Below are positions 227 to 39,418 of a DNA stretch of 64,000 bases, piece by piece (the first letter of the stretch is position 1; every line of letters starts with the position of its first letter). The stretch is from Chloroflexota bacterium (GTDB taxonomy: Bacteria; Chloroflexota; Limnocylindria; P2-11E), in contig VBFY01000061.1 of NCBI GenBank assembly GCA_005889405.1, forward strand, positions 1 to 64,000. The letters are read 5' to 3'. Both the position numbers and the translations under genes were made by a program. The notes under the pieces were generated by a model that did not search any database, had not been told where the DNA came from, and saw only the letters and a program-made list of their open reading frames with translations.

Positions 227-661
227 ATGCCCTACGCAGATCCTGACGAGCGGCGAGCTTACGGCCGCGAGTGGATGAAGCGCAATCCGGAGAAGGCGCG
301 TGCGGGCATGCAGCGCTGGCGGGCAGCGCACCCGGCGGAGCACCGCGCTCAAGGCCGCGCTCGCTACGCGCGACACACGGATCGGCTCAAAGCCCAGATT
401 GCGGCGTACCACCGCGCACATCCCGACATCGTCAGAGCGAAGCGCGAGAAGCACCGCGCGCTGCGTAAGGGCGCCATAGGTTTCTTCACCGCCGAGGAGT
501 GGCAGCAGCTTGTCATCGAGTACGACCACGCGTGCAACTATTGCGGCGTGATCGGACCACTCGAGCAGGATCATCGTGTTCCCCTTGCTCGAGGCGGTAC
601 GAATTGGATCGAGAACATCTTGCCGGCTTGCCGCCGCTGCAACGCCCGCAAGCCTTGCTGA
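227..661 (+). CDS. HNH endonuclease, 3' end frameshifted
   Basis: A 144-residue HNH nuclease. The first about 85 residues are basic and repetitive (DPDERRAYGREWMKRNPEKA and similar), which suggests DNA binding. The nuclease core follows: CNYC near residue 106, DH in EQDHRVPLARGGTN, and CRRC near residue 135, giving all four zinc cysteines. The frame stops at CNARKPC, but another frame continues to 711 with LLTEDEFRAR, matching the C-terminal tail of the related gene at 1388-1885. One missing G near 652 explains this. It is about 20 residues shorter than its paralog, but the catalytic core is intact. The start is an ATG; another ATG at 211 opens only an 11-codon frame. The target is unknown. 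Such free-standing HNH genes are common in phages and mobile DNA. Confidence 0.75.
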   Translation: MPYADPDERRAYGREWMKRNPEKARAGMQRWRAAHPAEHRAQGRARYARHTDRLKAQIAAYHRAHPDIVRAKREKHRALRKGAIGFFTAEEWQQLVIEYDHACNYCGVIGPLEQDHRVPLARGGTNWIENILPACRRCNARKPC

Positions 662-707
662 CGGAAGACGAGTTCCGTGCGCGCCTTGCCGCCGAGGGCC
701 ACGCGTT

Positions 708-1331
708 CTAGCGCCGTTGCGACTGACGCATCATGTAGTAGAAGAAACCGCCGATCAGGAACACTGGCAGAAGGCTCAAGAGGATCGAGCCGATCACTGA
801 GAACGTGGGGCTCTCCTGCTGGTAGTCGATGGTGATCTGCCGCGATGGGTTCGCGGTGTTGTAGTCGAAGAGCGCCTTCTGGAAGACCTCGTCGCGCTCC
901 GGCAGTGTCGTCTGATGTTTGTCCCCGTTGGCGAGCTCCAATACGGCCCGGTTCGCCCCGCTGAAGATCGTGACCTTCTTCACCTGGCCGGCGTTGACCT
1001 CCTGGATCGCCTGGGTGATCGTCACGGTCTGTATCGCCGGTGTCTGTGAGCGGTACGCGTAGAGCAGGGCGAGCCCCAGCACGACCAGCAGCAGAGTCAG
1101 CACGCCGTTCCGGAAAGCACTTGTCGGACGCGGGACGCCGGTCGCGGCCACCGCGATCTCGCCCGAATCGCGAAACCCCTTACAACGACACGGCGCGCCG
1201 CCGATCTCGCGATAGCAGGGACGATCGACGCCGGCGTCCGTGCGGGCCGCCCGATGCGCGCCGTCGCGGTCGTGCCAGGACCATACGTGACCGCACTCGG
1301 CGCAGATCGCGCGGGCATCGTTCACGGCCAC
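708..1331 (-). CDS. zinc-ribbon-like motif fused to an FtsH N-terminal region (no ATPase or protease)
   Basis: A 207-residue protein in two parts. Residues about 10-52 hold a cysteine/histidine cluster (CAECGHVWSWH, then C..., then CRC) that probably binds a metal. Residues about 72-207 copy the membrane region of FtsH: TM1 ([16 protein letters not shown]), the extracytoplasmic domain, then TM2, ending at MMRQSQRR just where the FtsH ATPase linker would start. It closely resembles the full ftsH at 3378-5342, with blocks such as [18 protein letters not shown] identical. It lies antisense between the two HNH genes. It could join FtsH hexamers or compete for FtsH partners (HflKC-type or SPFH proteins), or it could be a decaying duplicate. 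The open frame and in-frame fusion favour a real gene. Start GTG. Confidence 0.7.
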   Translation of the reverse strand: MAVNDARAICAECGHVWSWHDRDGAHRAARTDAGVDRPCYREIGGAPCRCKGFRDSGEIAVAATGVPRPTSAFRNGVLTLLLVVLGLALLYAYRSQTPAIQTVTITQAIQEVNAGQVKKVTIFSGANRAVLELANGDKHQTTLPERDEVFQKALFDYNTANPSRQITIDYQQESPTFSVIGSILLSLLPVFLIGGFFYYMMRQSQRR

Positions 1332-1375
1332 AAGATTACGTGCCCGGTCCTATTGCACCGGCGTGGGCTGTTTGC

Positions 1376-1381
1376 TAGATA
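1376..1381 (+). promoter_or_regulatory. -10 box of a leaderless HNH gene
   Basis: TAGATA lies 6 bases before the GTG at 1388. The surrounding decamer GCTAGATAGG (1374-1383) is repeated exactly at 197-206, in front of the other HNH gene. This suggests both genes moved or duplicated together with their promoter. Confidence 0.5.
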
Positions 1382-1387
1382 GGTCGC

Positions 1388-1885
1388 GTGGCGTACAAGG
1401 ATCCGGAACGGCAGCGTGCGTACGCACGCGAGTGGATGAAGCGCAATCCCGAGAAAGCGCGCGAGGCGGTACGTCGGTGGAGCAAGACGCACCCTGAACA
1501 GCGGCGCGCGGCGAAGCGACTCTATTACGCACGCCACCGCGAACAGCACACGCTAACCATGGCCGCATATCACAAGGCCCATCCGGAGGTTCTTCGAGCT
1601 AAGAGCAGCGCATATCGCGCGCGTGCTCGCGCAGCCGACGGGCGCTTCACGAGTGCTGAGTGGCGCGCCCTGGTCGACATTTATGACGGCAGGTGCGCGT
1701 ACCGCGGCGAGGCGGGACCTCTCCAGGTGGACCATCGAATCCCGCTGTCACGAGGAGGCACGAACGCGATCGACAACGTGCTCCCGGCGTGTCGGACGTG
1801 CAACACGCAGAAGGGCCAGATGACCGAGACCGAGTTTCGAGCGCGCCTCGATGCGGAGCGTCGCGCAGCTACGCCGATAGAATGA
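1388..1885 (+). CDS. HNH endonuclease paralog with one zinc cysteine lost
   Basis: A 165-residue HNH protein clearly related to the gene at 227: the same N-terminal repeats (WMKRNPEKA), the same spacing, and the catalytic stretch VDHRIPLSRGGTN. Its C-terminal tail is complete (TETEFRARLDAERR). The first zinc knuckle reads CAYRG instead of CxxC, so one of four structural cysteines is an arginine (codon cgc). CRTC near residue 137 is intact. Loss of one ligand could weaken folding of the beta-beta-alpha-metal unit. The gene ends on top of the promoter of the following tRNA. Start GTG; no ribosome binding site is seen and it is probably leaderless. Confidence 0.75.
   Translation: MAYKDPERQRAYAREWMKRNPEKAREAVRRWSKTHPEQRRAAKRLYYARHREQHTLTMAAYHKAHPEVLRAKSSAYRARARAADGRFTSAEWRALVDIYDGRCAYRGEAGPLQVDHRIPLSRGGTNAIDNVLPACRTCNTQKGQMTETEFRARLDAERRAATPIE
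1878..1883 (+). promoter_or_regulatory. -10 box of the CAU tRNA promoter
   Basis: TAGAAT, the same hexamer as before the initiator tRNA, lies 19 bases before the tRNA at 1903 and inside the last codons of the HNH gene. It predicts a 5' leader of about 12 bases. Confidence 0.5.
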
Positions 1886-1902
1886 TCATCGCGGGCGCAC
1901 GC

Positions 1903-1980
1903 GGCTGGGTAGCTCAGTTGGCCTAGAGCAGTCGACTCATAACCGACCGGTCGGCGGTTCGAATCCGCCCCCAGCCACCA
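1903..1980 (+). tRNA. tRNA with CAU anticodon, probably tRNA-Ile2 (or elongator Met)
   Basis: Acceptor GGCTGGG (1903-1909) pairs with CCCAGCC (1970-1976), followed by A and an encoded CCA. The anticodon loop is CTCATAA. The anticodon and variable region (CTCATAACCGACCGGTCG) looks more like bacillar tRNA-Ile2 than elongator tRNA-Met. The next base after CCA is the first base of tilS, whose enzyme modifies exactly tRNA-Ile2(CAU). Both facts point to Ile2, but the acceptor stem lacks the C4-G69/C5-G68 pairs used by E. coli TilS, so elongator Met remains possible. An A:C mismatch closes the anticodon stem. Confidence 0.9.
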
Positions 1981-3387
1981 GTGGCAATGGTTCTCCCGTC
2001 CACGATTCTCAGCTCCGTCCGTTCCTACGCGCGCGCCAACAAGATCCTCCGTCCCGGTCCGCTCGTCCTCGCGGTCTCCGGCGGCACCGACTCGACCGCG
2101 CTCGCGCTCCTCCTCGCGGAGCTGCGCGACGACGTCGGCCTCGTGCTTCACGTCGCGCACTTCGATCACCGCGCGCGTCCGCGCGCGGCCGCTGCGGACG
2201 CGGCGTTCGTCGCGGAGCTCGCCAACCATATCGGCGCCACGCTGCGTGTGGGTCGCGCGGACGCGCCGCCGAAGAACGAGGACGATGCGCGCAACGCCCG
2301 CTACGCGTTCCTGCGACGTGTCGCGCGCGACCTCGGCGCGACGGCGATCGCCACGGGCCACACGCGGGACGATCAGGCCGAGACCGTCCTGCTCCACCTC
2401 GCACGCGGAAGTGGACTCGCGGGACTTGCGGCCATGCGACCCGAACGCGACGGCATCGTCCGTCCGCTTCTCACGCTGGGTCGCAGCGACACGTCCGCCG
2501 TTTGCGCCGCGGCAAGGATCACCCCGCGCGACGACCCGACGAATCGCTCCCTGCGATTTGCCCGGAATCGCATCCGGCACCGCGTCCTGCCGGAGCTCGC
2601 GAAGCTCAATCCGGATATCACGAGCGCGATCGCGCGGCTGGCCGAGGCCGCGGCGGCGGTCGCGGACATCTCCTCGGATCACGCGGCCGTCACGCTCGGG
2701 GCCGCGGTGAGTCAAGACGCCGTCGTTCTGGACCGCCTGCCGCCCCGCGGGGAGGCCCGCGCCGCCGCGCTCGCCCTCTGGTGGCAGCAGCGCACGGGTC
2801 AGGGGCTCGCGGCACGCCAGCGAGCCGCGCTCACGCAGCTTGCGGCGTCGACCGATGGCTCGCGATCCCTCGACCTGCCCGGCGGGCGAGCGCTTCGCGA
2901 ATACAAGACGCTACGGATCGCCCCGCGGGAAGAGGGGTCGGTTGCGGCGGGTAAGAAGACGCTAAGAAACGGGCCGATCACGCTCGAACGCGGGACGACC
3001 GCGGACTGGCATGGATGGCGCTTCGCGTTTGTTGTGGGTTTGGACGGCGGTTCGCAGGTCGCACTCTTAGGCGCAGAGCGAGTGATCATTCGCGGACGCC
3101 GACCGGGAGACCGAATCAACGGCCCGCGAGGTGCAAAGGTCCAGGACGTGTTCACCGACGCGAAGGTCCCCGCGGGCGAGCGCGACGGGTGGCCGCTGGT
3201 CACCGTTGCCGCAAAGGTCGTTTGGATCCCTGGGATCACGCCACCCCCGCGCACCGGGCGATCGGCCCTCCGAGCGCTCCGAATGGGGGAGGACTCTCAA
3301 GGAATGACCCTTGGTAACCGCCAGCAGGTAGCATCGTTAAGAGAAGAGCGCCCACGGGGCACAGAGAGAGGCCGGCCACGAACCTAG
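1981..3387 (+). CDS. tilS: tRNA(Ile)-lysidine synthase
   Basis: Attaches lysine to C34 of tRNA-Ile2(CAU) with ATP, so that the tRNA reads AUA and is charged with isoleucine. The 468-residue protein has the PP-loop ATP site SGGTDS (33-38), the conserved GHTRDDQAET (126-135), and a C-terminal tRNA-binding domain near residues 370-405 (GDRIN, VQDVFTDAKVP). The length is normal for the long form. The GTG start follows directly on the CCA of the CAU tRNA; an ATG two codons later is an alternative. The 3' end overlaps the probable true start of ftsH; tilS-ftsH is a widespread gene pair. Confidence 0.95.
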   Translation: MAMVLPSTILSSVRSYARANKILRPGPLVLAVSGGTDSTALALLLAELRDDVGLVLHVAHFDHRARPRAAAADAAFVAELANHIGATLRVGRADAPPKNEDDARNARYAFLRRVARDLGATAIATGHTRDDQAETVLLHLARGSGLAGLAAMRPERDGIVRPLLTLGRSDTSAVCAAARITPRDDPTNRSLRFARNRIRHRVLPELAKLNPDITSAIARLAEAAAAVADISSDHAAVTLGAAVSQDAVVLDRLPPRGEARAAALALWWQQRTGQGLAARQRAALTQLAASTDGSRSLDLPGGRALREYKTLRIAPREEGSVAAGKKTLRNGPITLERGTTADWHGWRFAFVVGLDGGSQVALLGAERVIIRGRRPGDRINGPRGAKVQDVFTDAKVPAGERDGWPLVTVAAKVVWIPGITPPPRTGRSALRALRMGEDSQGMTLGNRQQVASLREERPRGTERGRPRT

Positions 3388-7208: not shown

Positions 7209-7912
7209 GCTCGGCGTTCGCACGCACCGCCGATCCATGGACGGACACCGCGGTCATCGACGCGCGCGCACCGCGCACGAACCAGGCGATCGTCGGGACT
7301 CTTTCGCTCCTCGCATTCGTCACGGGCTGGTGGCCGATCCTCGGTCTTCTCGCCGCTCAGCTCGCGATCGGCCTGCGCTTCGGACGGCGGTGGTGTCTGC
7401 CCTGCCTCCTCTACTTCGACGTGATCCAGCCTCGCTTCGGCGAGGGTCCGATCGAGGACAGCCGTCCGCCGCGCTTCGCGAACTTGGTCGGCGTGGTGTT
7501 CCTCGGGAGCGCGACGCTCGCGCACGCATTGGGGTTCCCCGTTGTCGGCTGGGGCCTCGGCCTGCTCGTCGCCGCGCTCGCGTTGCTCGCGGCGACGACC
7601 GGTCTGTGCGTGGGATGCGAGATCTACCGGCTCGGGGCGCGCATCCGCGGGATCCGTCCGGGGAGGATCGAGCGCGTCGATCTGGCGGAGCTCGGCGCAG
7701 CCGGGCGCGTCGGTGAGGTGGTCGTGCAGTTCACCCATCCGCTCTGCACCGATTGCCACACGCTCGAGCGCGAGCTTGTCGCCGCCGGACGCGACGTTTT
7801 CACGGTCGACGTGTCTCGGCGACCTGAGCTGGCCCGCAAGTACGGCGTAGCGCTCGTCCCGACCGCGGTGGCGGTCGGACCCGAGGGCATCGTCACCGCG
7901 CGTCTCGCCTGA
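7205..7912 (+). CDS. DUF4395 membrane protein fused to a thioredoxin-like domain
   Basis: A 235-residue fusion. Residues about 25-155 match DUF4395: membrane segments near 35-55, 100-120 and 120-145, with paired cysteines facing the membrane (RRWCLPC and GLCVGCEIY). Residues about 165-235 form a thioredoxin-like unit with CTDC, a cis-proline-like ALVPTAV and a beta strand AVGPEG. Four cysteine pairs or near-pairs suggest thiol-disulfide exchange across or at the membrane. The substrate is unknown. The ATG overlaps the stop of the ATP-grasp gene by four bases. Confidence 0.7.
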   Translation: MSSAFARTADPWTDTAVIDARAPRTNQAIVGTLSLLAFVTGWWPILGLLAAQLAIGLRFGRRWCLPCLLYFDVIQPRFGEGPIEDSRPPRFANLVGVVFLGSATLAHALGFPVVGWGLGLLVAALALLAATTGLCVGCEIYRLGARIRGIRPGRIERVDLAELGAAGRVGEVVVQFTHPLCTDCHTLERELVAAGRDVFTVDVSRRPELARKYGVALVPTAVAVGPEGIVTARLA

Positions 7913-7923
7913 TACTGGCGCTG

Positions 7924-8400
7924 GTGGACGACGGCCCGCACGCGAGGCTGCGGCGACGCAAGCGTCGCATCGATGAGCATTTGCGCGAGCTCGCCGAGAT
8001 GGGAGAGCTTTCGAAGCTGCCCGGCGAAGGCGCGCCGCTCGTCGACGACGACCCGACCGCCGGCGACCGGTGGGCCGCCCGGCACATCGCGAAGAATGCG
8101 AACGTCGCGCCGGAGTTCGTCGAGCTGCGCCGCGAGATCGCCGATCGCCGCAACAGCCTGGTTCGCCGACTGCGCGCGCATCGGGAGTGGCTCGAGGACC
8201 GGGCGGCGCTACTCCGCGACCTCCCTGCCGAGCGGATCCTCGACGCGGCCCGTGCCACGACCGACTTCGACGGCCGCGTGGGGTCCGAGCTGCGGAGCGC
8301 TATCGGCGAGATCAACGCGCTCGTCGCGCGTCACAACCTGCGGGTGCCGATCGCTCTGCAGATCGTTCCGCTTGCCCTCGAAGACCTGCGCGGTGACTGA
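7924..8400 (+). CDS. DUF1992 (DnaJC28-type) domain protein
   Basis: A 158-residue soluble protein. The signature LPGEGAPLVDDD near residue 36, then ARHIAKNANVAPEFVELRREI near 57-77, matches the DUF1992 domain seen in DNAJC28-like proteins. The rest is helical and charged, with possible coiled coil near 75-125. No J domain is present. The role in bacteria is not known. Start GTG, 12 bases after the preceding gene. Confidence 0.75.
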   Translation: MDDGPHARLRRRKRRIDEHLRELAEMGELSKLPGEGAPLVDDDPTAGDRWAARHIAKNANVAPEFVELRREIADRRNSLVRRLRAHREWLEDRAALLRDLPAERILDAARATTDFDGRVGSELRSAIGEINALVARHNLRVPIALQIVPLALEDLRGD

Positions 8401-8420
8401 CTGACCGGGTCGCGCACGCC

Positions 8421-9608
8421 ATGAGAATGCGTGTCGGTAAGGTCCCGGTGCTTGCCGCGATTGCCGCGTTCGTGGTCGTCTTCGGCACGATCGCGGCGGC
8501 GTCGAACAACTGGTACGAGTTTTCCGACTTCTTCTGTCTCTACCATGGCGCGCGCTCGCTCGTGCTCGGACACGACCCGTACGACGCGAGCTGGTGGCTG
8601 CAGGCGACGGGTGGCCTGCGCCCCACGCCTAGCGGCGGCCTCGCGCGTACGTCGTGCTATGGGGGTCCGGGTTATCCGCTTTGGACCTTCCTCGCGATGC
8701 TGCCGATCGGGGCATTGCCACTCGAGCCGGCCGCCATCGTGTGGGAGTCGCTGTCGATCGGCGCGGCGCTCGCGGGGGCGTGGTGGGCATGGCGCGCCGT
8801 TCAGGGTCCGGCGCGTTTCGCGCTGCTGTACCTCGCGCTGCTTCTCGCCTCGCAGCCGTTCTGGCTGCTGGTCATCTACGGCCAGATCACGGGCGTGATG
8901 CTCGCCATCGCCGGACTGCTCGCGCTTCTCCTGACACGCGCCCGGGAACGCGCGGCGGGCGTCGCCCTGGCCGCGCTCGCCCTTAAGCCGCAGTGCGTCT
9001 TCCTCACGTTGCCGGCGTTCGCCCTGCGTGGTCTCGTCGAACGGCGCTGGCGTCTGCTCATGGCGGCCGCCCTCGCCGCGGTCGCCATGACGGTCGCTCC
9101 GATGATCTTCGTCCCCGCGTGGCCTCTCGAATGGTGGGTCGAGGTGAGCGCCCGCCGCATGCAGGTCGTCTCGCTTCTGCCAACGGCATGGGGCTTCGCT
9201 GGCGACGTCCTGGCCAACGCATCAATCGGCGCGGTGCTGATCGCGGCGGTCCTCGCCGCCACCTGGATCCTGCTGCGCGGCCGCCGTGTCGACGACGTCG
9301 GTCTCCTGGCGCTCACCCTGCCGCTCTCGCTCTTTGCGACGACGTACGCGTGGACGTATGACCATCTGGTCTTGTTCGTCTCCTACGCGTTCGTGCTCTC
9401 GCGCGCCAGCTCGACCGCCGGTGTTCGCCTACCCCTGGTGCTGGGAACCGTCGCCCTTGCCGGTCCGGTCCCCTGGGTGCTGTACGCGATCGCCCTCACA
9501 CGACTCAACGAATCGTTGTCAGCCTGGATCGCCGCTGCGACGGCCCTGCTCGTCGTCTTCGCGCTGCGTGCGGGCGCGCCGTCGATGACGTCGAGGTCAT
9601 CGGTCTAG
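8421..9608 (+). CDS. GT87-type (DUF2029) membrane glycosyltransferase
   Basis: A 395-residue polytopic membrane protein with about ten hydrophobic segments. A conserved acidic loop after TM1 (YEFSDFFCLYHGARSL, then GHDPYDA) resembles the DUF2029/GT87 family of polyprenyl-phosphate-mannose-dependent transferases. In that family the loop faces the outside and carries the catalytic aspartate; here D41 or D55 are candidates. A later GYPLWTF and LKPQ also fit the family. It likely adds a sugar to an envelope glycan or lipid. It ends in convergence with the zincin gene (4-base overlap). Confidence 0.75.
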   Translation: MRMRVGKVPVLAAIAAFVVVFGTIAAASNNWYEFSDFFCLYHGARSLVLGHDPYDASWWLQATGGLRPTPSGGLARTSCYGGPGYPLWTFLAMLPIGALPLEPAAIVWESLSIGAALAGAWWAWRAVQGPARFALLYLALLLASQPFWLLVIYGQITGVMLAIAGLLALLLTRARERAAGVALAALALKPQCVFLTLPAFALRGLVERRWRLLMAAALAAVAMTVAPMIFVPAWPLEWWVEVSARRMQVVSLLPTAWGFAGDVLANASIGAVLIAAVLAATWILLRGRRVDDVGLLALTLPLSLFATTYAWTYDHLVLFVSYAFVLSRASSTAGVRLPLVLGTVALAGPVPWVLYAIALTRLNESLSAWIAAATALLVVFALRAGAPSMTSRSSV

Positions 9609-10072: not shown

Positions 10073-10156
10073 TTATCAACTGTACGGACCGGCCCTGCGC
10101 TACCGAGCCTGGGCGCAGAGATGGCCAAAAATCGAGCGTTTCGCTACGATGCGGCG

Positions 10157-32167: not shown

Positions 32168-33502
32168 ATGCGCATCGCGCTGCGCCTCGCATCGGTCATC
32201 GCGATGGCGCTGGGCGTGTCCGGCTTCGCCTTCGCGGCGGACGACGCTCACACGGTGCTCGTCGGCCACATCGAAGGCGTTATCAACCCCATCACGGCTC
32301 GCTACGTCGACCGTCTGCTCGACGAGGGGGAGCAGCGGAAGGTCGCCGCGGTCGTCTTCGTCATCGACACGCCCGGCGGTCTTATCGATTCGACCTACAA
32401 GATCACCGGCCGGATGCTCAACGCCGCGGTTCCGATCATCACCTATGTCGCGCCGTCGGGAGCGCACGCGGCGTCGGCCGGCACCTTCATCACGCTCGCC
32501 GGGCACGTCGCGGCGATGGCGCCGTCGACGAACATCGGCGCGGCGCACCCGGTGGACTCGTCCGGCGGCGACATCCAGGGCGACCTCCGCCTCAAGGCGG
32601 AGAACGATGCCGTGGCGCAGATCACCAATATCGCCCGCGCGCGCGGACACAACGCCCAGTGGGCGGAGGACGCGGTCCGCAAGAGCGTGAGCATCGGCGT
32701 GGACGAAGCCGTGAGCCTCAAGGTGGTCGACCTCATGGCGACCGACGTGCGCAGCCTCGTCGATCAGGTCGACGGCCGTCGAGTCACGACATCGGCGGGC
32801 GCGGTGGCGCTCGCTACGAAAGGCGCCTCGCTCGAGGAAAAGGGGCCGAACCCCTTCGAGGCGCTCCTCCACCTCATCGTCGATCCGCAGATCGCGGTGC
32901 TCCTATTCACGGTCGGCACCTACGGGATCATCTTCGAGCTCAGCAATCCGAGCCTCATCTTCCCCGGCATCATCGGAGTGATCGCCATCGTTCTCGCGCT
33001 GTTCGCTTTTGGTACCCTCGATGCGAACGCAGCGGGGATCGCTCTCCTTATTTTCTCGGTCGTGCTCTTCGTCGCCGAGATCAAGATCGCGAGCCACTTC
33101 CTGCTCACCGCGGGCGGTCTCGTCTCGCTCGTCGTGGGGACGATCATCCTGTTCCCACCGCTGCGACCGACGTTCCCGGGACTCCGCGCTGACGTCGATC
33201 CTGTCGTGATCGCCACCGTCGCGCTGGTGTCGGGCGTGTTCTTCTTCTTTGTCGCGCGGTTCGCGCTCTCGACGCGCAAGCTCGCGTGGGCGGGCGGCTC
33301 GCCGGTCCTCGTGGGTGCGACGGGCGTCGCGAAGAGCGACATCGGACCGAATGGAATCGCCTATGTCGCGGGCGAGGAATGGTCCGCGCGCAGTGAGAGC
33401 GGCGCGATCCCGAAGGGGAGCGAAGTCCGTGTGAAACGCAAGGAAGGTCTGAGCCTTATCGTCGAGCCGAACGATTCGTCACCGGGGAGGGGAGCGTCCT
33501 GA
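32168..33502 (+). CDS. NfeD-type membrane serine protease (ClpP-class)
   Basis: 444 residues. Signal peptide (1-23, ending AFA), then a ClpP/SppA-like serine protease domain with the Ser-Lys dyad S103 (HAASAGTF) and K172 (EDAVRKSVS), and the substrate loop DTPGGLIDST. Four membrane helices follow (about 230-345) and a C-terminal OB-fold domain (about 375-435). NfeD proteases act with SPFH/stomatin proteins in membrane quality control; in the Pyrococcus pair the protease cleaves stomatin. Here the SPFH gene starts on the last base of this gene, which supports a complex. Confidence 0.9.
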   Translation: MRIALRLASVIAMALGVSGFAFAADDAHTVLVGHIEGVINPITARYVDRLLDEGEQRKVAAVVFVIDTPGGLIDSTYKITGRMLNAAVPIITYVAPSGAHAASAGTFITLAGHVAAMAPSTNIGAAHPVDSSGGDIQGDLRLKAENDAVAQITNIARARGHNAQWAEDAVRKSVSIGVDEAVSLKVVDLMATDVRSLVDQVDGRRVTTSAGAVALATKGASLEEKGPNPFEALLHLIVDPQIAVLLFTVGTYGIIFELSNPSLIFPGIIGVIAIVLALFAFGTLDANAAGIALLIFSVVLFVAEIKIASHFLLTAGGLVSLVVGTIILFPPLRPTFPGLRADVDPVVIATVALVSGVFFFFVARFALSTRKLAWAGGSPVLVGATGVAKSDIGPNGIAYVAGEEWSARSESGAIPKGSEVRVKRKEGLSLIVEPNDSSPGRGAS

Positions 33503-34398
33503 TGGATATCGGTCTTGCCATCGCGATCTTCGCGGCAGTCATCGTGATCCTCATCCTGCGCACGATCATCCACATCGTGCCTCAGTACCAGCGCCTCGTG
33601 GTCCTGGCGCTCGGGAGATATCAGAAGATGGCCGGACCTGGCTTGGTGCTCCTGCTCCCGCCGCCGATCCAGGTCGGCATCAACGTCGACCTGCGTGAGT
33701 TCGTAGTCGAGATCCCGCAACAGACCTGCATCACCAAGGACAACGCGCCCATCTCGATCGACTTCCTGATCTACCAGAAGGTGATGGAGGAGCAGGCCGC
33801 CGACTCCGTCCTGAAGATCCAGAACTTCCGGACCGCCGTCACGGGCATCGCGACCACGACACTCCGCGCCGTGATCGGCGACATCCTCCTCGATGACGTG
33901 CTCGCCAAGCGCGAGCAGATCAACGAGGTGCTGCGGACGAAGCTCGACGAGGTGACCCAACGGTGGGGCGTGAAGGTCACCACGGTCGAGATCCGCGAGC
34001 TCACCCCACCGCGCGACGTCCAAGAGGCGATGAACCGCCAGCTCACCGCCGAGCGCACCCGGCGCGCGTCGGTCACCGAAGCCGAGGGCAAGCGCGCCTC
34101 CGCGATCCTCGTGGCCGAGGGCGACAAGCAGTCGAACATCCTCCAGGCCGAGGGACAGAGGCAATCGCAGATCCTGCGCGCCGAGGGCTTCGCCCTCGCG
34201 CTCGACAAGATCAACGAGATGGCGAATCACGCCGACCCGCGGACGATCACGCTGCAGTACCTCGAGGCGCTCAAGGTGCTCGGCGCGTCGCCGTCGACGA
34301 AGTTCATCATCCCGACCGAGTTCGCGGCCCTCGCCGCGCCGCTCGCGGCGTTCGCGCGCGGCGGCGGCGAAGACGGCGAGAAGAAGGCGCCGCGCTAG
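33502..34398 (+). CDS. SPFH/stomatin-like protein (slipin)
   Basis: 298 residues: one N-terminal membrane helix (1-20), SPFH domain (RTIIHIVPQYQRLVVLALGR onward, residues 21-190), then a long Ala/Glu/Gln-rich coiled coil (about 185-255) and a C-terminal Gly-rich end. The core motifs DLREFVVEIPQQ and ELTPPRDVQEAMNRQLTAER are typical of stomatins. It forms membrane rings or scaffolds and is the expected partner of the NfeD protease upstream. No further gene follows until the small reverse-strand gene at 34698. Confidence 0.92.
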   Translation: MDIGLAIAIFAAVIVILILRTIIHIVPQYQRLVVLALGRYQKMAGPGLVLLLPPPIQVGINVDLREFVVEIPQQTCITKDNAPISIDFLIYQKVMEEQAADSVLKIQNFRTAVTGIATTTLRAVIGDILLDDVLAKREQINEVLRTKLDEVTQRWGVKVTTVEIRELTPPRDVQEAMNRQLTAERTRRASVTEAEGKRASAILVAEGDKQSNILQAEGQRQSQILRAEGFALALDKINEMANHADPRTITLQYLEALKVLGASPSTKFIIPTEFAALAAPLAAFARGGGEDGEKKAPR

Positions 34399-34445: not shown

Positions 34446-34491
34446 GGGGCTCAGCGCCTCGGCGGAGGGTCGCCCGAATCCGCGGCCGGCT

Positions 34492-34698
34492 TCATCTCTT
34501 GAGAAAGACTGAGCGAGGCGATCCATGTCGAGCAGCCGTGCCCTGGGTGCTGTCCGTCGCCTTCACGGCCATCGGGCGGGCCAGACGGTGGGGCGCGAGA
34601 GGTGAATACACGCGCGGCGGCATCCGCCAGGCGGACGCCGCCGGCGCGTGGCGTGTTGGAAGGGCAGCTCGAACAGCGAATGCATTCATCACAGCCAT
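34492..34698 (-). CDS. small basic protein under LexA-type control, unknown
   Basis: 68 residues, rich in Ala, Pro and Arg, with no membrane helix or known motif (begins MAVMNAFAVRAALPTRHAP). Evidence that it is real: ATG with AGGGGAG (34712-34706) exactly 7 bases upstream, and a promoter with TTGACA (34765-34760), 16-base spacer and TAATAT (34743-34738), overlapped by two GAAC-N4-GTTC boxes. SOS-induced small proteins in Gram-positive bacteria are often cell-division inhibitors (YneA, DivS, SosA), but no resemblance is visible, so that role is only a guess. A second reverse frame covers the same DNA but has no ribosome site. Confidence 0.55.
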   Translation of the reverse strand: MAVMNAFAVRAALPTRHAPAASAWRMPPRVYSPLAPHRLARPMAVKATDSTQGTAARHGSPRSVFLKR

Positions 34699-34722
34699 TT
34701 GTGTGCTCCCCTAAGGCAGTAT

Positions 34723-34736
34723 CGAACGTGCGTTCG
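34723..34736. promoter_or_regulatory. LexA box 1
   Basis: CGAACGTGCGTTCG fits the Gram-positive LexA consensus CGAACRNRYGTTYG at every position. It lies immediately downstream of the -10 of the leftward promoter, over the expected start site near 34731. Confidence 0.82.
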
Positions 34737-34737
34737 C

Positions 34738-34765
34738 ATATTAGAACGCCTGTTCTGGCTGTCAA
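34738..34765 (-). promoter_or_regulatory. leftward promoter between LexA boxes
   Basis: On the reverse strand: TTGACA (34765-34760), 16 bases, TAATAT (34743-34738). It is the best sigma-70-type promoter seen in the window. LexA box 2 fills the spacer and box 1 follows the -10, so a bound repressor would block it. Confidence 0.78.
34744..34755. promoter_or_regulatory. LexA box 2
   Basis: GAACGCCTGTTC (flanked AGAAC...GTTCT) fits the GAAC-N4-GTTC core. Its centre is 20 bases from the centre of box 1, about two DNA turns, so two dimers could bind the same face. It also overlaps the likely -35 region of the rightward ligase-like gene. Confidence 0.75.
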
Positions 34766-34788
34766 GAGGGTGGGATACTCGACCAAAG

Positions 34789-35382
34789 TTGAAGACCATT
34801 TTGGGCGTCGATCTGGCGCCTCAGCGACCCCGCTTCGCCCGCGAACGCGCGGAGGTAGCGAACCACATCCTCGAGCCGGATTGGGTGGGAACGCGGGCTC
34901 TGGCGCGCATCGGACACGGTGGACCTCACTTCGTCGGCTACGCCGGCGAGGTGGACGGCCCGCGGGAGCTGTACGACGCGATCGCGGCCGAAGCGCAATG
35001 CACGACCGCGATCATCGACGGGGTCCTCGTCTCCGACTGGCGTGATGAGTCGGAGCTCGAGCTCGATCCTGATGGCAATGCGTTCGTGCGGAAAGCGAGC
35101 GCGAGGCAGATCTTCGCAGCATTCGATCTGCTCGAGGTCGACGGCGAGTCGCTGCTCGAGATCCCGCTGCTCGAACGCAAGCGACACCTCGAGGGCCTCT
35201 TGGTCCCGAGCGTCAATGTCCGCCTCACACCGTTCGTCACCCGGGGCCTGCGCTCGTGGCGCGAGACGCTCGTCGCGCAGGGCTTCCATCGCGTCGTGCT
35301 AAAGAACTGGAACAGCGCCTACGCTCCAGGTCGCACCACGGACGACTGGCTCGTCGTGGAAAAGATCAGCGGTGCGAGATAA
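34789..35382 (+). CDS. ATP-dependent DNA-ligase-like protein lacking the catalytic lysine
   Basis: 197 residues from TTG 34789, the only usable start downstream of the LexA region; a -10-like GATACT (34774-34779) precedes it. The layout matches the nucleotidyltransferase domain of LigD-type ligases: motif I position LEPDWVGTR (family E-K-DG-R), motif III FAAFDLLEVDG, LLERKRHLEGLL, and motif IV/V HRVVLKNWNSAYAPGR then DDWLVVEK. In motif I the nucleophilic Lys is Asp and the following Asp is Val, so it cannot form the AMP adduct in the usual way. No OB domain. Likely an end-binding or regulatory relative. gdhA follows after 14 bases. Confidence 0.6.
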   Translation: MKTILGVDLAPQRPRFARERAEVANHILEPDWVGTRALARIGHGGPHFVGYAGEVDGPRELYDAIAAEAQCTTAIIDGVLVSDWRDESELELDPDGNAFVRKASARQIFAAFDLLEVDGESLLEIPLLERKRHLEGLLVPSVNVRLTPFVTRGLRSWRETLVAQGFHRVVLKNWNSAYAPGRTTDDWLVVEKISGAR

Positions 35383-35396
35383 CCGAGGAGGATGTC

Positions 35397-36671
35397 GTGG
35401 CCACAAAGTCAGTCGTCATCGATCACACCCAGCGCGATCCCTGGTCGGTCGCGCTCGAGCAGTTCGGGATCGCGGCGGACAAGCTTCACCTCGACCCGAA
35501 CATGCGCGCCATCCTCGCGGAGTGCCAGCGTGAGCTGACGGTGCACTTCCCAGTCCGAATGGCCGATGGCGTCGTGAAGGTCTTCAGCGGCTATCGGGTG
35601 CAGCACAACACCACACGCGGACCGGGCAAGGGCGGCATCCGGTACCACCCCTCCGTCTCGCTCGGCGAGGTCAAGGCGCTTGCGATGTGGATGACGTGGA
35701 AGTGCGCGGTCGTCGGCATCCCGTACGGCGGCGCCAAGGGTGGCGTCGTCTGCGACCCGAAGACCATGAGCCAGCAGCAGCTCGAAACGCTCACGCGGCG
35801 GTACACGACCGAGATCGAGCTCCTCATCGGCCCGGATCGCGACATTCCCGCGCCCGACGTGAACACCAACGCCCAGACCATGGCCTGGATCATGGACACG
35901 TACTCGATGCACCACGGCTACACCGCGCTTGCCGTCGTCACCGGCAAGCCGCTGTCGATCGGCGGCAGCGAAGGGCGCAACGAGGCGACCGCGCGCGGCG
36001 CCGTGTACACGATCATCGAGGCGTCGAAGCACCTCGGCATCGATCTCGAGGGAACGCGCGTGGTGGTGCAGGGCTACGGCAACGCCGGCTCGTTCTCGGC
36101 GAAGCTCATGGCGGAGCTCGGCGCGCGCGTGGTGGGCGTCTCGGACACGAGCGGCGGCATCTACAGCGCACGGGGCATCGATCCGATGAAGGTGGACGCG
36201 TACAAGCGCGAGACCGGCTCGGTGACCGGGTTCCCGGGGACCGAGAAGGTCTCCAACGCCGAGCTGCTCGAGCTCGACTGCGACATCCTCATCCCGGCCG
36301 CCATCGAGAACCAGATCGGCGAGCACAACGCGCCCCGCATCAAGGCGAAGATCGTCGCCGAGGCCGCGAACGGTCCGACGAGCCCCGAAGCCGACCGCAT
36401 CCTCTTCGACCGCGGCGTCTTCCTCATCCCGGACATCCTGTGCAACGCGGGCGGAGTGACCGTGTCCTACTTCGAGTGGGTGCAGGACCTGCAGAACCTG
36501 TTCTGGCGCGAGGCCACGATCAACGCGCGGCTGAAGGAAGTCATGGTGAAGTCGTTCAACGACGTCCTCGAAATGCAGAAGAAGAACAAAGTCGACATGC
36601 GGACCGCCGCGTACATGGTGGCCGTCGCGCGTGTCGCCGAGGCCACGCTCACCCGCGGCATATACCCGTAA
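35397..36671 (+). CDS. gdhA: glutamate dehydrogenase
   Basis: Interconverts glutamate with 2-oxoglutarate and ammonia using NAD(P). 424 residues, hexameric type: GPGKGGIRYHPSV, the substrate site KCAVVGIPYGGAKGGV with catalytic lysine, PAPDVNTNAQTMAW, and the Rossmann motif VVQGYGNAGS. Cofactor preference cannot be told reliably. GTG start with GAGGAGG just upstream. It lies downstream of the ligase-like gene and might be reached by transcripts starting at the LexA region. Confidence 0.96.
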   Translation: MATKSVVIDHTQRDPWSVALEQFGIAADKLHLDPNMRAILAECQRELTVHFPVRMADGVVKVFSGYRVQHNTTRGPGKGGIRYHPSVSLGEVKALAMWMTWKCAVVGIPYGGAKGGVVCDPKTMSQQQLETLTRRYTTEIELLIGPDRDIPAPDVNTNAQTMAWIMDTYSMHHGYTALAVVTGKPLSIGGSEGRNEATARGAVYTIIEASKHLGIDLEGTRVVVQGYGNAGSFSAKLMAELGARVVGVSDTSGGIYSARGIDPMKVDAYKRETGSVTGFPGTEKVSNAELLELDCDILIPAAIENQIGEHNAPRIKAKIVAEAANGPTSPEADRILFDRGVFLIPDILCNAGGVTVSYFEWVQDLQNLFWREATINARLKEVMVKSFNDVLEMQKKNKVDMRTAAYMVAVARVAEATLTRGIYP

Positions 36672-36709: not shown

Positions 36710-39418
36710 CTGGAGCTCGTCGCGCTCGACGTCGAGACCACCGGGTTCGACCCGGAGTCAGACCGCGTCATCGAGATCGGCGCGGTACGGGTGCGTCTCG
36801 AGGAGGACGGCTCGGCGACGCTGGGTGAGCGCTTCAGCACGTTCGTCGATCCCGGCGTCGGCGTCGGTCCGGCGATCACGCGTCTCACCGGGATCCGCGA
36901 CGGCGACCTCGCCGGCGCACCCGCGCTGGAGTCGGTCGCGGGCCGCATCGCCTCGCTCGTCGCGGGAGCGCCGATCGCAGGGCACAACATCGGCTTCGAC
37001 CTCGCGTTCCTCGAGCGCGCCGCGCTCGGTCCGTTCGAGCGGCTCGACACGGCCGAGCTTGCGTCGATCCTGATTCCATCCGCGCCGACGTACGCGCTGC
37101 AGTCGCTCGCCGCCGACGCGGGCATCCATCCCGAGTCGGCGCACCGTGCGCTCGATGACGCGCTTACGTGCGCCGCGGTGCTGGGGGACCTCGGGCGTCG
37201 CGCGCGCGAGCTGCCGGTCGCGGTCCTCGAGGAGATTCAGGCATACGCTCCGCTCCTCGGGTCCGCGTACGCCGCGTTCTTCGCCGGCGCGCTCCGCAGC
37301 GCCGCGCGCGGCGCGTGGGAGCCGACGCGTCTCGCGACGCCGCCGCGAGCCCTCGGCTCCGCGACGCTGGGCGCCGGCGTCACGGTCGAGGCGGTGTTCT
37401 CGGCGGACGGCCCGCTCGCGCGCGGCCTCGCGGGCTACGAGGACCGCCCGCAGCAGCGCGCGCTGGCGAGCGCGATCGAAGGCGCGTTCCGCGACGGCGG
37501 CGCGCTGATCGCCGAGGCCGGTACCGGAGTGGGGAAGTCGCTTGCGTATCTCGTACCCGCGATCGGGCGCGCCCTCGACGGAGAACGCGTGATCGTGAGC
37601 ACACACACCCTGCCGCTGCAGGACCAGCTCGTGCGCAAAGATCTGCCCGCTCTGCAGACCGCGCTCGACTCGACCGTCGAGGTGGCCGTACTGAAGGGCC
37701 GATCGAACTACCTCTGTCCGCGTCGCTGGCAGTCGTTCCGCGGTCTCGTCGCGACTCGCGACGAAGCACGGCTCCTGCTCAAGACGCTGGTCTGGCGCAC
37801 CACCACGAGCACCGGTGACCGCGCCGAGCTGAACCTCCTGGGAACGGAGAGCGATCTGTGGGGCCGCGTGTCAGCCGACGACGAGACCTGCGACGCGCGC
37901 CGCTGTGCACGGGTCGCGGGAGGCTGCTATCTCCAGCGGGCGCGCGAGGCGGCCGCGCGCGCCGGCATCGTCGTTACCAATCACGCGCTCCTGCTGCAGG
38001 ACGCGCGCATGCGCGGTGCGCTGTTACCGGAGACGGACCACCTCGTCGTCGACGAGGCGCATCGCCTGGAGGACGTGGCGACCGACGCTTTCGGCCTCGC
38101 GCTCGAGGACCGCGCCTTCCGCCGCGCGCTCGATCGCGTCGCGCACTCGTCCACGGTCACATCGGCCCTCCGCGATGATCGCGCGCTCGTCGCCGAAGAG
38201 GTGCGCCGAGAGATCGCATCGGCGCACGAGCGGGGCGGTGAGGTCTTCGCGGCGCTGGCCGCGGTGCTCGAGCCGCTGGGTCCGACCGAGGACAAGCTGC
38301 GCGTCACGCCCGGCGTGCGCGCGAGCGACGAGCAATGGCTCCCGGTGGAGCTCGCGTCGGACCGTCTGGAGGACGCCCTCGCGGGCATCGCCGTCGCGGC
38401 GGAGCGGCTCAGATCGATGACGAGGGATGAGGACGAAGAGGCGGACTTGAAATCCGCGCTCGGGGAACTCGGCGGTGTGCAGTCCGCTCTCTCTCGTGGC
38501 GTGCGCAAGCCCCGCGGCGGCGACATCGTGTGGATCGAGCGTGCTTCGAGCGGCGCGGTCTCGCTTCAGATCGCGCCGTCCTATTTGGGTGATGCCCTCC
38601 GGCAAGGTCTCGTAGCGCCGCGTCGCTCGGCCGTGTTCACCTCAGCGACGCTCGCTGTCGCTGGCTCGTTCGCGTTCGCGCTCGAGCGCTTCGGACTGAC
38701 GGACATCGGCGACGCCCGCGCGTTCGGCTCGCCCTTTCGCTACGACGAGCAGGCGATCCTCGTCGTGCCCGATGATGGCGCGCTCCCGTCGGAACCGCCC
38801 TTCGCGGAGGAAACGGCGCAGACGATCACCGAGATCGGCAGGGCGCTCGACGGTCGCACGCTCGTTCTCTTCACCGCGCACGGCTCGATGCGCGACGTCG
38901 CGGCGCGCCTCGGTCCGCTCGAGGAAACCGGCATCGCCGTGCTCACGCAGGGGATCGACGGCTCCAGGCGCGCGCTCCTCGAACGCTTCGCCGCGGGCCG
39001 CGCCGTGCTCCTCGGGACGCAGTCGTTCTGGGAGGGAGTCGACCTCCCGGGCGATCTGCTGCGCTGCGTCGTCATCGCGCGTCTGCCCTTCGCCGTCCCC
39101 GACGATCCGCTCGTCCAGGGTCGCGCCGAGCGCTACGAGGATCCGTTCGCGGAGTTCCAGGTCCCGCAGGCGGCGCTCCGGCTGCGCCAGGGCTTCGGTC
39201 GACTCATTCGGACGCGGACCGATCGTGGCGCGGTCGTTCTGCTCGATCGGCGCGCGATCATGCGCGAGTACGGCGCACGCATGCTCGCGTCTCTTCCCGA
39301 TGCCCGCCTTCACCGCGTTCCGCGGGACGACGTCGCCGCGACGGTGGCGGTGTTCTGTAATCGGGCAGCTTCGCTGCCCTCATCTGCTGGCGTGTGGGCT
39401 CCGCCCACGCCGCAGTAA
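36710..39418 (+). CDS. dinG: DnaQ-type exonuclease fused to DinG-family helicase
   Basis: About 902 residues. Residues 1-165 form a DEDDh exonuclease (ALDVETTGFD motif I; PIAGHNIGFDLAFL; HRALDDALTCA with the fifth-motif His and Asp). A superfamily-2 DinG/XPD-like helicase follows: Walker A AEAGTGVGKS, four cysteines for an Fe-S cluster (CPRRW, CDARRCARVAGGC), DEAH box VVDEAHRLEDVA, and motif VI RQGFGRLIRTRTDRG. Motif I of the exonuclease lies upstream of the first standard start (GTG 36791), so translation must begin at CTG 36710 or ATC 36698; a stop at 36695 bounds the frame. The last codons (39362-39405) are two short hairpins. Confidence 0.9.
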   Translation: MELVALDVETTGFDPESDRVIEIGAVRVRLEEDGSATLGERFSTFVDPGVGVGPAITRLTGIRDGDLAGAPALESVAGRIASLVAGAPIAGHNIGFDLAFLERAALGPFERLDTAELASILIPSAPTYALQSLAADAGIHPESAHRALDDALTCAAVLGDLGRRARELPVAVLEEIQAYAPLLGSAYAAFFAGALRSAARGAWEPTRLATPPRALGSATLGAGVTVEAVFSADGPLARGLAGYEDRPQQRALASAIEGAFRDGGALIAEAGTGVGKSLAYLVPAIGRALDGERVIVSTHTLPLQDQLVRKDLPALQTALDSTVEVAVLKGRSNYLCPRRWQSFRGLVATRDEARLLLKTLVWRTTTSTGDRAELNLLGTESDLWGRVSADDETCDARRCARVAGGCYLQRAREAAARAGIVVTNHALLLQDARMRGALLPETDHLVVDEAHRLEDVATDAFGLALEDRAFRRALDRVAHSSTVTSALRDDRALVAEEVRREIASAHERGGEVFAALAAVLEPLGPTEDKLRVTPGVRASDEQWLPVELASDRLEDALAGIAVAAERLRSMTRDEDEEADLKSALGELGGVQSALSRGVRKPRGGDIVWIERASSGAVSLQIAPSYLGDALRQGLVAPRRSAVFTSATLAVAGSFAFALERFGLTDIGDARAFGSPFRYDEQAILVVPDDGALPSEPPFAEETAQTITEIGRALDGRTLVLFTAHGSMRDVAARLGPLEETGIAVLTQGIDGSRRALLERFAAGRAVLLGTQSFWEGVDLPGDLLRCVVIARLPFAVPDDPLVQGRAERYEDPFAEFQVPQAALRLRQGFGRLIRTRTDRGAVVLLDRRAIMREYGARMLASLPDARLHRVPRDDVAATVAVFCNRAASLPSSAGVWAPPTPQ

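What the first reader, a model, noticed from the sequence alone, without database searches (positions are those of the whole stretch)
34789..35382. DNA-ligase-like protein without catalytic lysine, beside SOS boxes
Motifs III, IV and V of ATP-dependent ligases can be followed, but motif I reads EPDWVGTR where E-K-DG-R is expected. Nucleophile Lys is Asp and the next Asp is Val. A pseudo-ligase placed divergently from a LexA-controlled gene suggests a DNA-end-binding or regulatory factor in damage response.
Basis: partly seen in the sequence, partly recalled or inferred. Interest (0 to 1): 0.72.

Follow-up and report, generated by a model that had tools for sequence, protein, structure and literature searches.

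The report
Catalytically dead DNA-ligase-like protein family
A whole class of uncultured soil and water bacteria (Chloroflexota, probably Limnocylindria) keeps a shrunken DNA-ligase-like protein that has lost every residue needed to join DNA but keeps those that would hold an adenine nucleoside, so it probably works as a non-enzymatic binding or sensing protein rather than as a ligase.

Summary
The 197-aa ORF at 34789-35382 (+) is a DNA-ligase adenylation domain (Pfam 34 bits; AlphaFold pLDDT 90; best PDB fold matches are ATP-dependent DNA ligases) with Asp for the nucleophilic Lys.

It is not a local mutation. Orthologs occur in 128 of 177 genomes of the bacterial class, form one clade (support 100/99), evolve under purifying selection (dN/dS 0.09-0.25), and none has a motif-I Lys (0 of 64). 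What remains near-invariant is the adenosine half of the pocket: motif I Glu and Arg, IIIa aromatic, motif IV Lys.

The SOS link is narrower than claimed. Two genuine LexA operators sit in a conserved leftward promoter of a divergent, unannotated small gene (34492-34698, minus). That arrangement exists only in the window's own order; elsewhere no LexA box was found at the pseudo-ligase. It does not depend on Ku, and it is acidic, which weakens the DNA-end-binding idea.

Best reading: an ancient, class-specific pseudo-ligase, probably a non-catalytic adenine-nucleoside/nucleotide-binding regulatory protein. The ligand is untested.

The parts
34789..35382 (+). pseudo-ligase gene, 197 aa, single degenerate ATP-dependent DNA ligase adenylation (nucleotidyltransferase) domain, no OB domain; TTG start
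34873..34896 (+). motif I remnant EPDWVGTR (residues 29-36): nucleophile Lys replaced by Asp31, metal-site Asp by Val33; Glu29, Trp32, Gly34, Arg36 kept
35017..35025 (+). motif III remnant DGV (canonical DGE), residues 77-79; Glu lost
35113..35127 (+). motif IIIa FAAFD, residues 109-113; base-stacking aromatic Phe109 and Asp113 kept
35287..35304 (+). motif IV remnant HRVVLK, residues 167-172 (canonical EGxxxK): metal Glu lost, adenine-N1 Lys172 kept
35347..35364 (+). motif V remnant WLVVEK, residues 187-192 (canonical WhKhK): both catalytic-column Lys lost
34724..34735 (.). LexA operator 1 GAACGTGCGTTC
   Evidence: same operator motif upstream of lexA, uvrB, dnaB, RecA-like/Y-polymerase-like and MrfA/Hrq1-like genes in this genome
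34744..34755 (.). LexA operator 2 GAACGCCTGTTC, lying in the spacer of the leftward promoter and over the -35 region of the possible rightward promoter
34738..34765 (-). leftward sigma-70-type promoter TTGACA-16-TAATAT; the TTGAC part is kept in the order's loci printed
34492..34698 (-). divergent small SOS gene, 68 aa, core WRxPPRVYSPxxxRRxxRPMAVP, Shine-Dalgarno AGGGGAG; no Pfam or NCBIfam match; conserved only in the window's order
34774..34779 (+). possible rightward -10 element GATACT ahead of the pseudo-ligase start (inference)
   Evidence: read by eye in about two thirds of loci
35397..36671 (+). glutamate dehydrogenase gene, next to the pseudo-ligase in all 21 neighbourhoods of the order examined
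36791..39418 (+). DinG-type exonuclease/helicase, downstream, conserved but sometimes 1-3 kb away
33502..34398 (+). SPFH/Band 7 protein, upstream neighbour (NfeD gene before it)

Best explanation
The ORF encodes an ancient, class-specific pseudoenzyme: a free-standing ligase adenylation domain that lacks the residues for adenylylation, for the catalytic metals and for the triphosphate, and has no OB domain, but keeps the pocket half that recognises adenine and ribose. It most likely binds an adenine nucleoside or nucleotide (for example AMP, ADP-ribose, NAD or an adenylylated 5' end) without chemistry, and acts as a sensor, regulator or partner protein. Shown: the loss of catalytic residues, retention of the nucleoside-contact residues, fold (predicted), single origin and purifying selection. 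Inferred: that the pocket still binds a ligand, and that ligand binding is the function. In the window's order the gene shares a regulatory region with a LexA-controlled divergent small gene, so it may also be SOS-induced there; this is inferred from operator position only.
For: 64 orthologs against 16 active ligase domains: kept Glu29 63/64, Arg36 63/64, aromatic 109 63/64, Lys172 64/64, Asp77, Asp113 and Tyr178 64/64; lost or rare Lys31 0/64, Asp33 1/64, Arg501-equivalent 2/64, motif III Glu 0/64, motif IV Glu 4/64, Arg629-equivalent 10/64, motif V Lys 6/64 and 0/64. The kept set matches the published adenine N6, N1, stacking and ribose contacts, the lost set the nucleophile, metal and phosphate contacts (PMC6698739; PMC8656161). 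Fold: (pLDDT 90, pTM 0.85), (LigD ligase domain E 1e-21). One clade 100/99. dN/dS 0.09-0.25. 128 of 177 class genomes.
Against: Some kept residues (Gly34, Asp77, Asp113, Tyr178, Trp187) are also structural, and the four nucleoside-contact residues could be kept for folding alone. Equivalence of residues to LigD and Pmar-Lig positions rests on sequence alignment, not on a superposed co-crystal. Motif III Glu, a ribose contact, is among the lost residues, so the nucleoside half is not wholly intact. Without metal and triphosphate contacts, affinity may be low. No binding data exist.
Confidence: 0.5

Rival explanations
1. Non-catalytic reader of nicks or 5'-adenylylated DNA ends (abortive ligation products) acting in repair, co-induced with the SOS response in the window's order.
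Against: Acidic protein, net charge -5 to -6 against about +1 on average for active domains, though some active domains are also acidic; no OB domain to clamp DNA; no operators in f3/f5, where neighbours are sugar metabolism and glycosyltransferase genes; no dependence on Ku.
Confidence: 0.2
2. Regulatory partner of an active ligase (a prozyme): it pairs with one of the genome's five Lys-bearing ligases and activates or inhibits it.
For: Dead paralogs that regulate active relatives are known in other families (PMC5201418); five other ligase-domain genes in the genome, all with motif I Lys; strongly conserved motif PLLERKR and N-terminal PQ.
Against: Not linked to any ligase or Ku gene in either genomic context; present in 24 of 27 Ku-less genomes of the class outside f4.
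Confidence: 0.15
3. Protein-binding or structural domain that no longer binds any nucleotide; the conserved pocket residues serve folding.
For: Near-complete loss of phosphate and metal ligands; Pro30 and Trp32, not known as cofactor contacts, are equally invariant.
Against: Lys172 and Glu29 are polar pocket residues whose known job is to read adenine N1 and N6; invariance in 63-64 of 64 is hard to explain by folding alone.
Confidence: 0.13
4. Ligase or adenylyltransferase activity with a relocated nucleophile.
For: Some pseudoenzymes may have migrated catalytic residues (review PMC10211241, abstract).
Against: The only invariant Lys is the motif IV one, and metal and phosphate residues are lost too.
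Confidence: 0.02

Closest known systems
Ligase domain of bacterial LigD (e.g. Mycobacterium tuberculosis Rv0938, PDB 1vs0, 6nhx)
   Same: Same adenylation-domain fold and motif scaffold; best profile match in the PDB (E 1e-21); ExxWxGxR, FDLLxxDG, K...SxYxPG pattern retained
   Different: No nucleophile Lys, no metal or phosphate ligands, no OB domain, no polymerase or phosphoesterase domains, acidic
Free-standing ATP-dependent ligases (LigC type; C17 gene near Ku in this genome)
   Same: Separate ligase gene; nearest paralogs by pairwise score, about 28-33% identity
   Different: Those keep ExKWDG and the DGE and EGxxxK residues
Catalytically dead regulatory paralogs in general (e.g. Trypanosoma AdoMetDC prozyme)
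   Same: Conserved paralog with catalytic residues lost
   Different: No partner known here; a DNA ligase example was not found in the literature searched

Membership tests
ATP-dependent DNA ligase (as enzyme) | nucleotidyltransferase (adenylation) fold | tested here: met
ATP-dependent DNA ligase (as enzyme) | motif I KxDGxR with nucleophilic Lys | tested here: not met
   0 of 64 orthologs have Lys
ATP-dependent DNA ligase (as enzyme) | motif III and IV Glu (ribose and metal) | tested here: not met
   0/64 and 4/64
ATP-dependent DNA ligase (as enzyme) | motif V Lys residues | tested here: not met
   6/64 and 0/64
ATP-dependent DNA ligase (as enzyme) | C-terminal OB domain with motif VI | tested here: not met
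   ORF ends after motif V; only the adenylation-domain Pfam model matches
ATP-dependent DNA ligase (as enzyme) | nick sealing or self-adenylylation | not testable with these tools
   needs assay
LigD / NHEJ | linkage to or co-occurrence with Ku | tested here: not met
   24 of 27 Ku-less genomes outside f4 carry it, 104 of 131 Ku genomes do; genes not adjacent
LexA/SOS regulon (divergent small gene and, possibly, the pseudo-ligase) | LexA operator matching that of lexA in the same genome, in the promoter region | tested here: met
   for the pseudo-ligase only in the window's order (f1, f2)
LexA/SOS regulon (divergent small gene and, possibly, the pseudo-ligase) | induction by DNA damage | not testable with these tools
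   needs expression data

The most novel reading that the evidence does not exclude
A first DNA-ligase-derived nucleotide sensor: a class-wide bacterial protein in which the ligase active site has been split, the chemistry half erased and the adenosine-reading half preserved, so that it reports an adenine-containing signal (free nucleotide or 5'-adenylylated DNA), in one order wired next to an SOS-controlled small gene.
Probability: 0.35. Interest if true: 0.8.

Novelty: new variant of a known kind. Interest (0 to 1): 0.62.

Why it matters
Dead paralogs are known for many enzyme families; none of the papers found here describes one for DNA ligases. This family is well sampled, single-origin, under selection and splits the ligase pocket cleanly into kept and lost contacts, which makes a direct binding test simple. 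It also warns that ligase-domain hits in these genomes (such as Pfam PF01068) include likely non-enzymes.

Tried and rejected
1. Local mutation or decay: rejected. 2. Relocated nucleophile: no invariant Lys other than Lys172. 3. NHEJ partner: no co-occurrence with Ku, no gene linkage. 4. SOS boxes belonging only to the pseudo-ligase: first adopted, then dropped when the conserved leftward promoter and small ORF came up. 5. The 111-aa minus ORF 34451-34786 from the ORF list is in another frame than the conserved small ORF and has no support. 6. Relatives outside the class: in the genome-contig scan, the 12 out-of-class matches read in full all bear the Lys; a phylum search gave, outside the class, only weaker matches in long, mostly LigD-sized, frames, whose motif I was not read; phage matches were two weak hits, one annotated as a ligase. 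7. Literature on dead DNA ligases: none found.

Full report
What is there. The reading frame at 34789-35382 (+) gives 197 residues. Pfam's ATP-dependent DNA ligase adenylation domain matches above its cut-off (34 bits) and NCBIfam's NHEJ ligase model at 53 bits, below its own cut-off. No OB-fold domain follows; the next gene, glutamate dehydrogenase, starts 14 bases after the stop. AlphaFold gives a confident model (pLDDT 90, pTM 0.85) whose 50 best PDB matches are DNA ligases or complexes that contain one; a profile of the family best matches the mycobacterial LigD ligase domain (E 1e-21).

Is the missing lysine real and old? Yes. Orthologs (49-93% identity) with the same gene order were found in genomes of the same family, and one at 56% in a second family of the order. 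More distant members, about 200-245 aa, occur across the class: 128 of 177 genomes by the gap in scores (best E below about 1e-36; next come LigD-sized frames), namely 25/28 in f1, 1/1 in f2, 86/107 in f3, 0/19 in the small-genome family f4 and 16/22 in f5 (counted by hand from the table). In the phylum sample, what matched outside the class scored weaker and lay in long, mostly LigD-sized, frames whose motif I was not read. From the scan of 84,980 species, the 12 out-of-class relatives read in full are Lys-bearing ligases. The 38 pseudo-ligases in the tree are one clade (100/99). dN/dS is 0.09-0.25. The class is probably Limnocylindria: MAG names of the loci and the sister family with 0.8-1.2 Mb genomes fit its description (PMC13212565); this is inference.

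What was lost and what was kept. On 64 pseudo-ligases and 16 active ligase domains: nucleophile Lys 0/64, motif I Asp 1/64, motif III Glu 0/64, motif IV Glu 4/64, motif V Lys 6/64 and 0/64, phosphate Arg (LigD 501 and 629 equivalents) 2/64 and 10/64. Kept: motif I Glu 63/64, motif I Arg 63/64, motif IIIa aromatic 63/64, motif IV Lys 64/64. In active ligases the motif I acid contacts adenine N6, the motif IV Lys adenine N1, the IIIa aromatic stacks on the base and the motif I Arg contacts the ribose, while the lost residues serve chemistry, metal and phosphates, and in the case of motif III Glu also the ribose (PMC6698739; PMC8656161). Residue equivalence is by sequence alignment.

SOS context. 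GAACN4GTTC is the LexA operator here: it lies 26 bp (start to start) before the lexA start codon and near the starts of uvrB, dnaB, a RecA-like/Y-polymerase-like pair and an MrfA/Hrq1-type helicase in the same genome, and one lies before the LexA match in nearly all of the 14 other class genomes whose lexA loci were read, f1, f2, f3 and f5. The window's two copies lie in a leftward promoter TTGACA-16-TAATAT; a TTGAC at the same place is kept in the order's loci printed. It precedes a 68-aa minus-strand ORF (34492-34698) with the core WRxPPRVYSPxxxRRxxRPMAVP, seen in 24 of 25 loci, detected by profile in 26 genomes, all of the window's order, with third codon positions diverging more than first and second (0.52 against 0.32 and 0.30) and no Pfam or NCBIfam match. 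Operator 2 also covers the -35 region of a possible rightward promoter (GATACT at 34774-34779, seen by eye in about two thirds of loci), so co-regulation of the pseudo-ligase is plausible but unproven. In f3 and f5 the gene lies among what read as HNH endonuclease, CCA-adding enzyme, epimerase and glycosyltransferase genes (names from reading the translations, not from a family search), and no exact operator lies within 400 bp upstream in the 39 f3/f5 loci examined; in 15 of them searched further, one has one 482 bp away.

Against DNA-end binding. Mean net charge is about -4.7 to -6.1 in f1, f3 and f5 against about +0.7 in active domains, although single active domains are also acidic. Ku presence does not predict it: 24 of 27 Ku-less genomes outside f4 and 104 of 131 Ku genomes carry it (counted by hand from the tables, MAG incompleteness applies).

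Verdict. A genuine, ancient pseudo-ligase family; function most likely non-catalytic recognition of an adenine nucleoside or nucleotide; SOS proximity specific to one order.

Noticed in passing
window 34492-34698 (-): Unannotated small protein gene, Arg/Pro-rich, under a LexA-operator promoter, conserved beside the pseudo-ligase in the window's order only; function unknown and worth its own study.
   Followed up: partly
G000:C74 (L056) 7251-9477 (-), operator at 10115-10128: Split NHEJ cluster: LigD phosphoesterase, Lys-bearing ligase and LigD polymerase as separate genes, with a LexA-type palindrome upstream and a radical SAM gene on the other side.
   Followed up: partly
G000:C48 (L054) 314-2061 (-): RecA-like gene followed by a Y-family-polymerase-like gene (ImuA/ImuB-like) with a LexA operator just upstream.
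   Followed up: no
window 34789 and orthologs L011-L013, L016-L018: The pseudo-ligase start appears to be TTG in one genus and CTG at the same codon in another, close behind a GATACT element; perhaps a leaderless transcript with a weak start.
   Followed up: no
window 35397-36671 (+): Glutamate dehydrogenase gene directly follows the pseudo-ligase in every locus of the order examined; why is unexplained.
   Followed up: no
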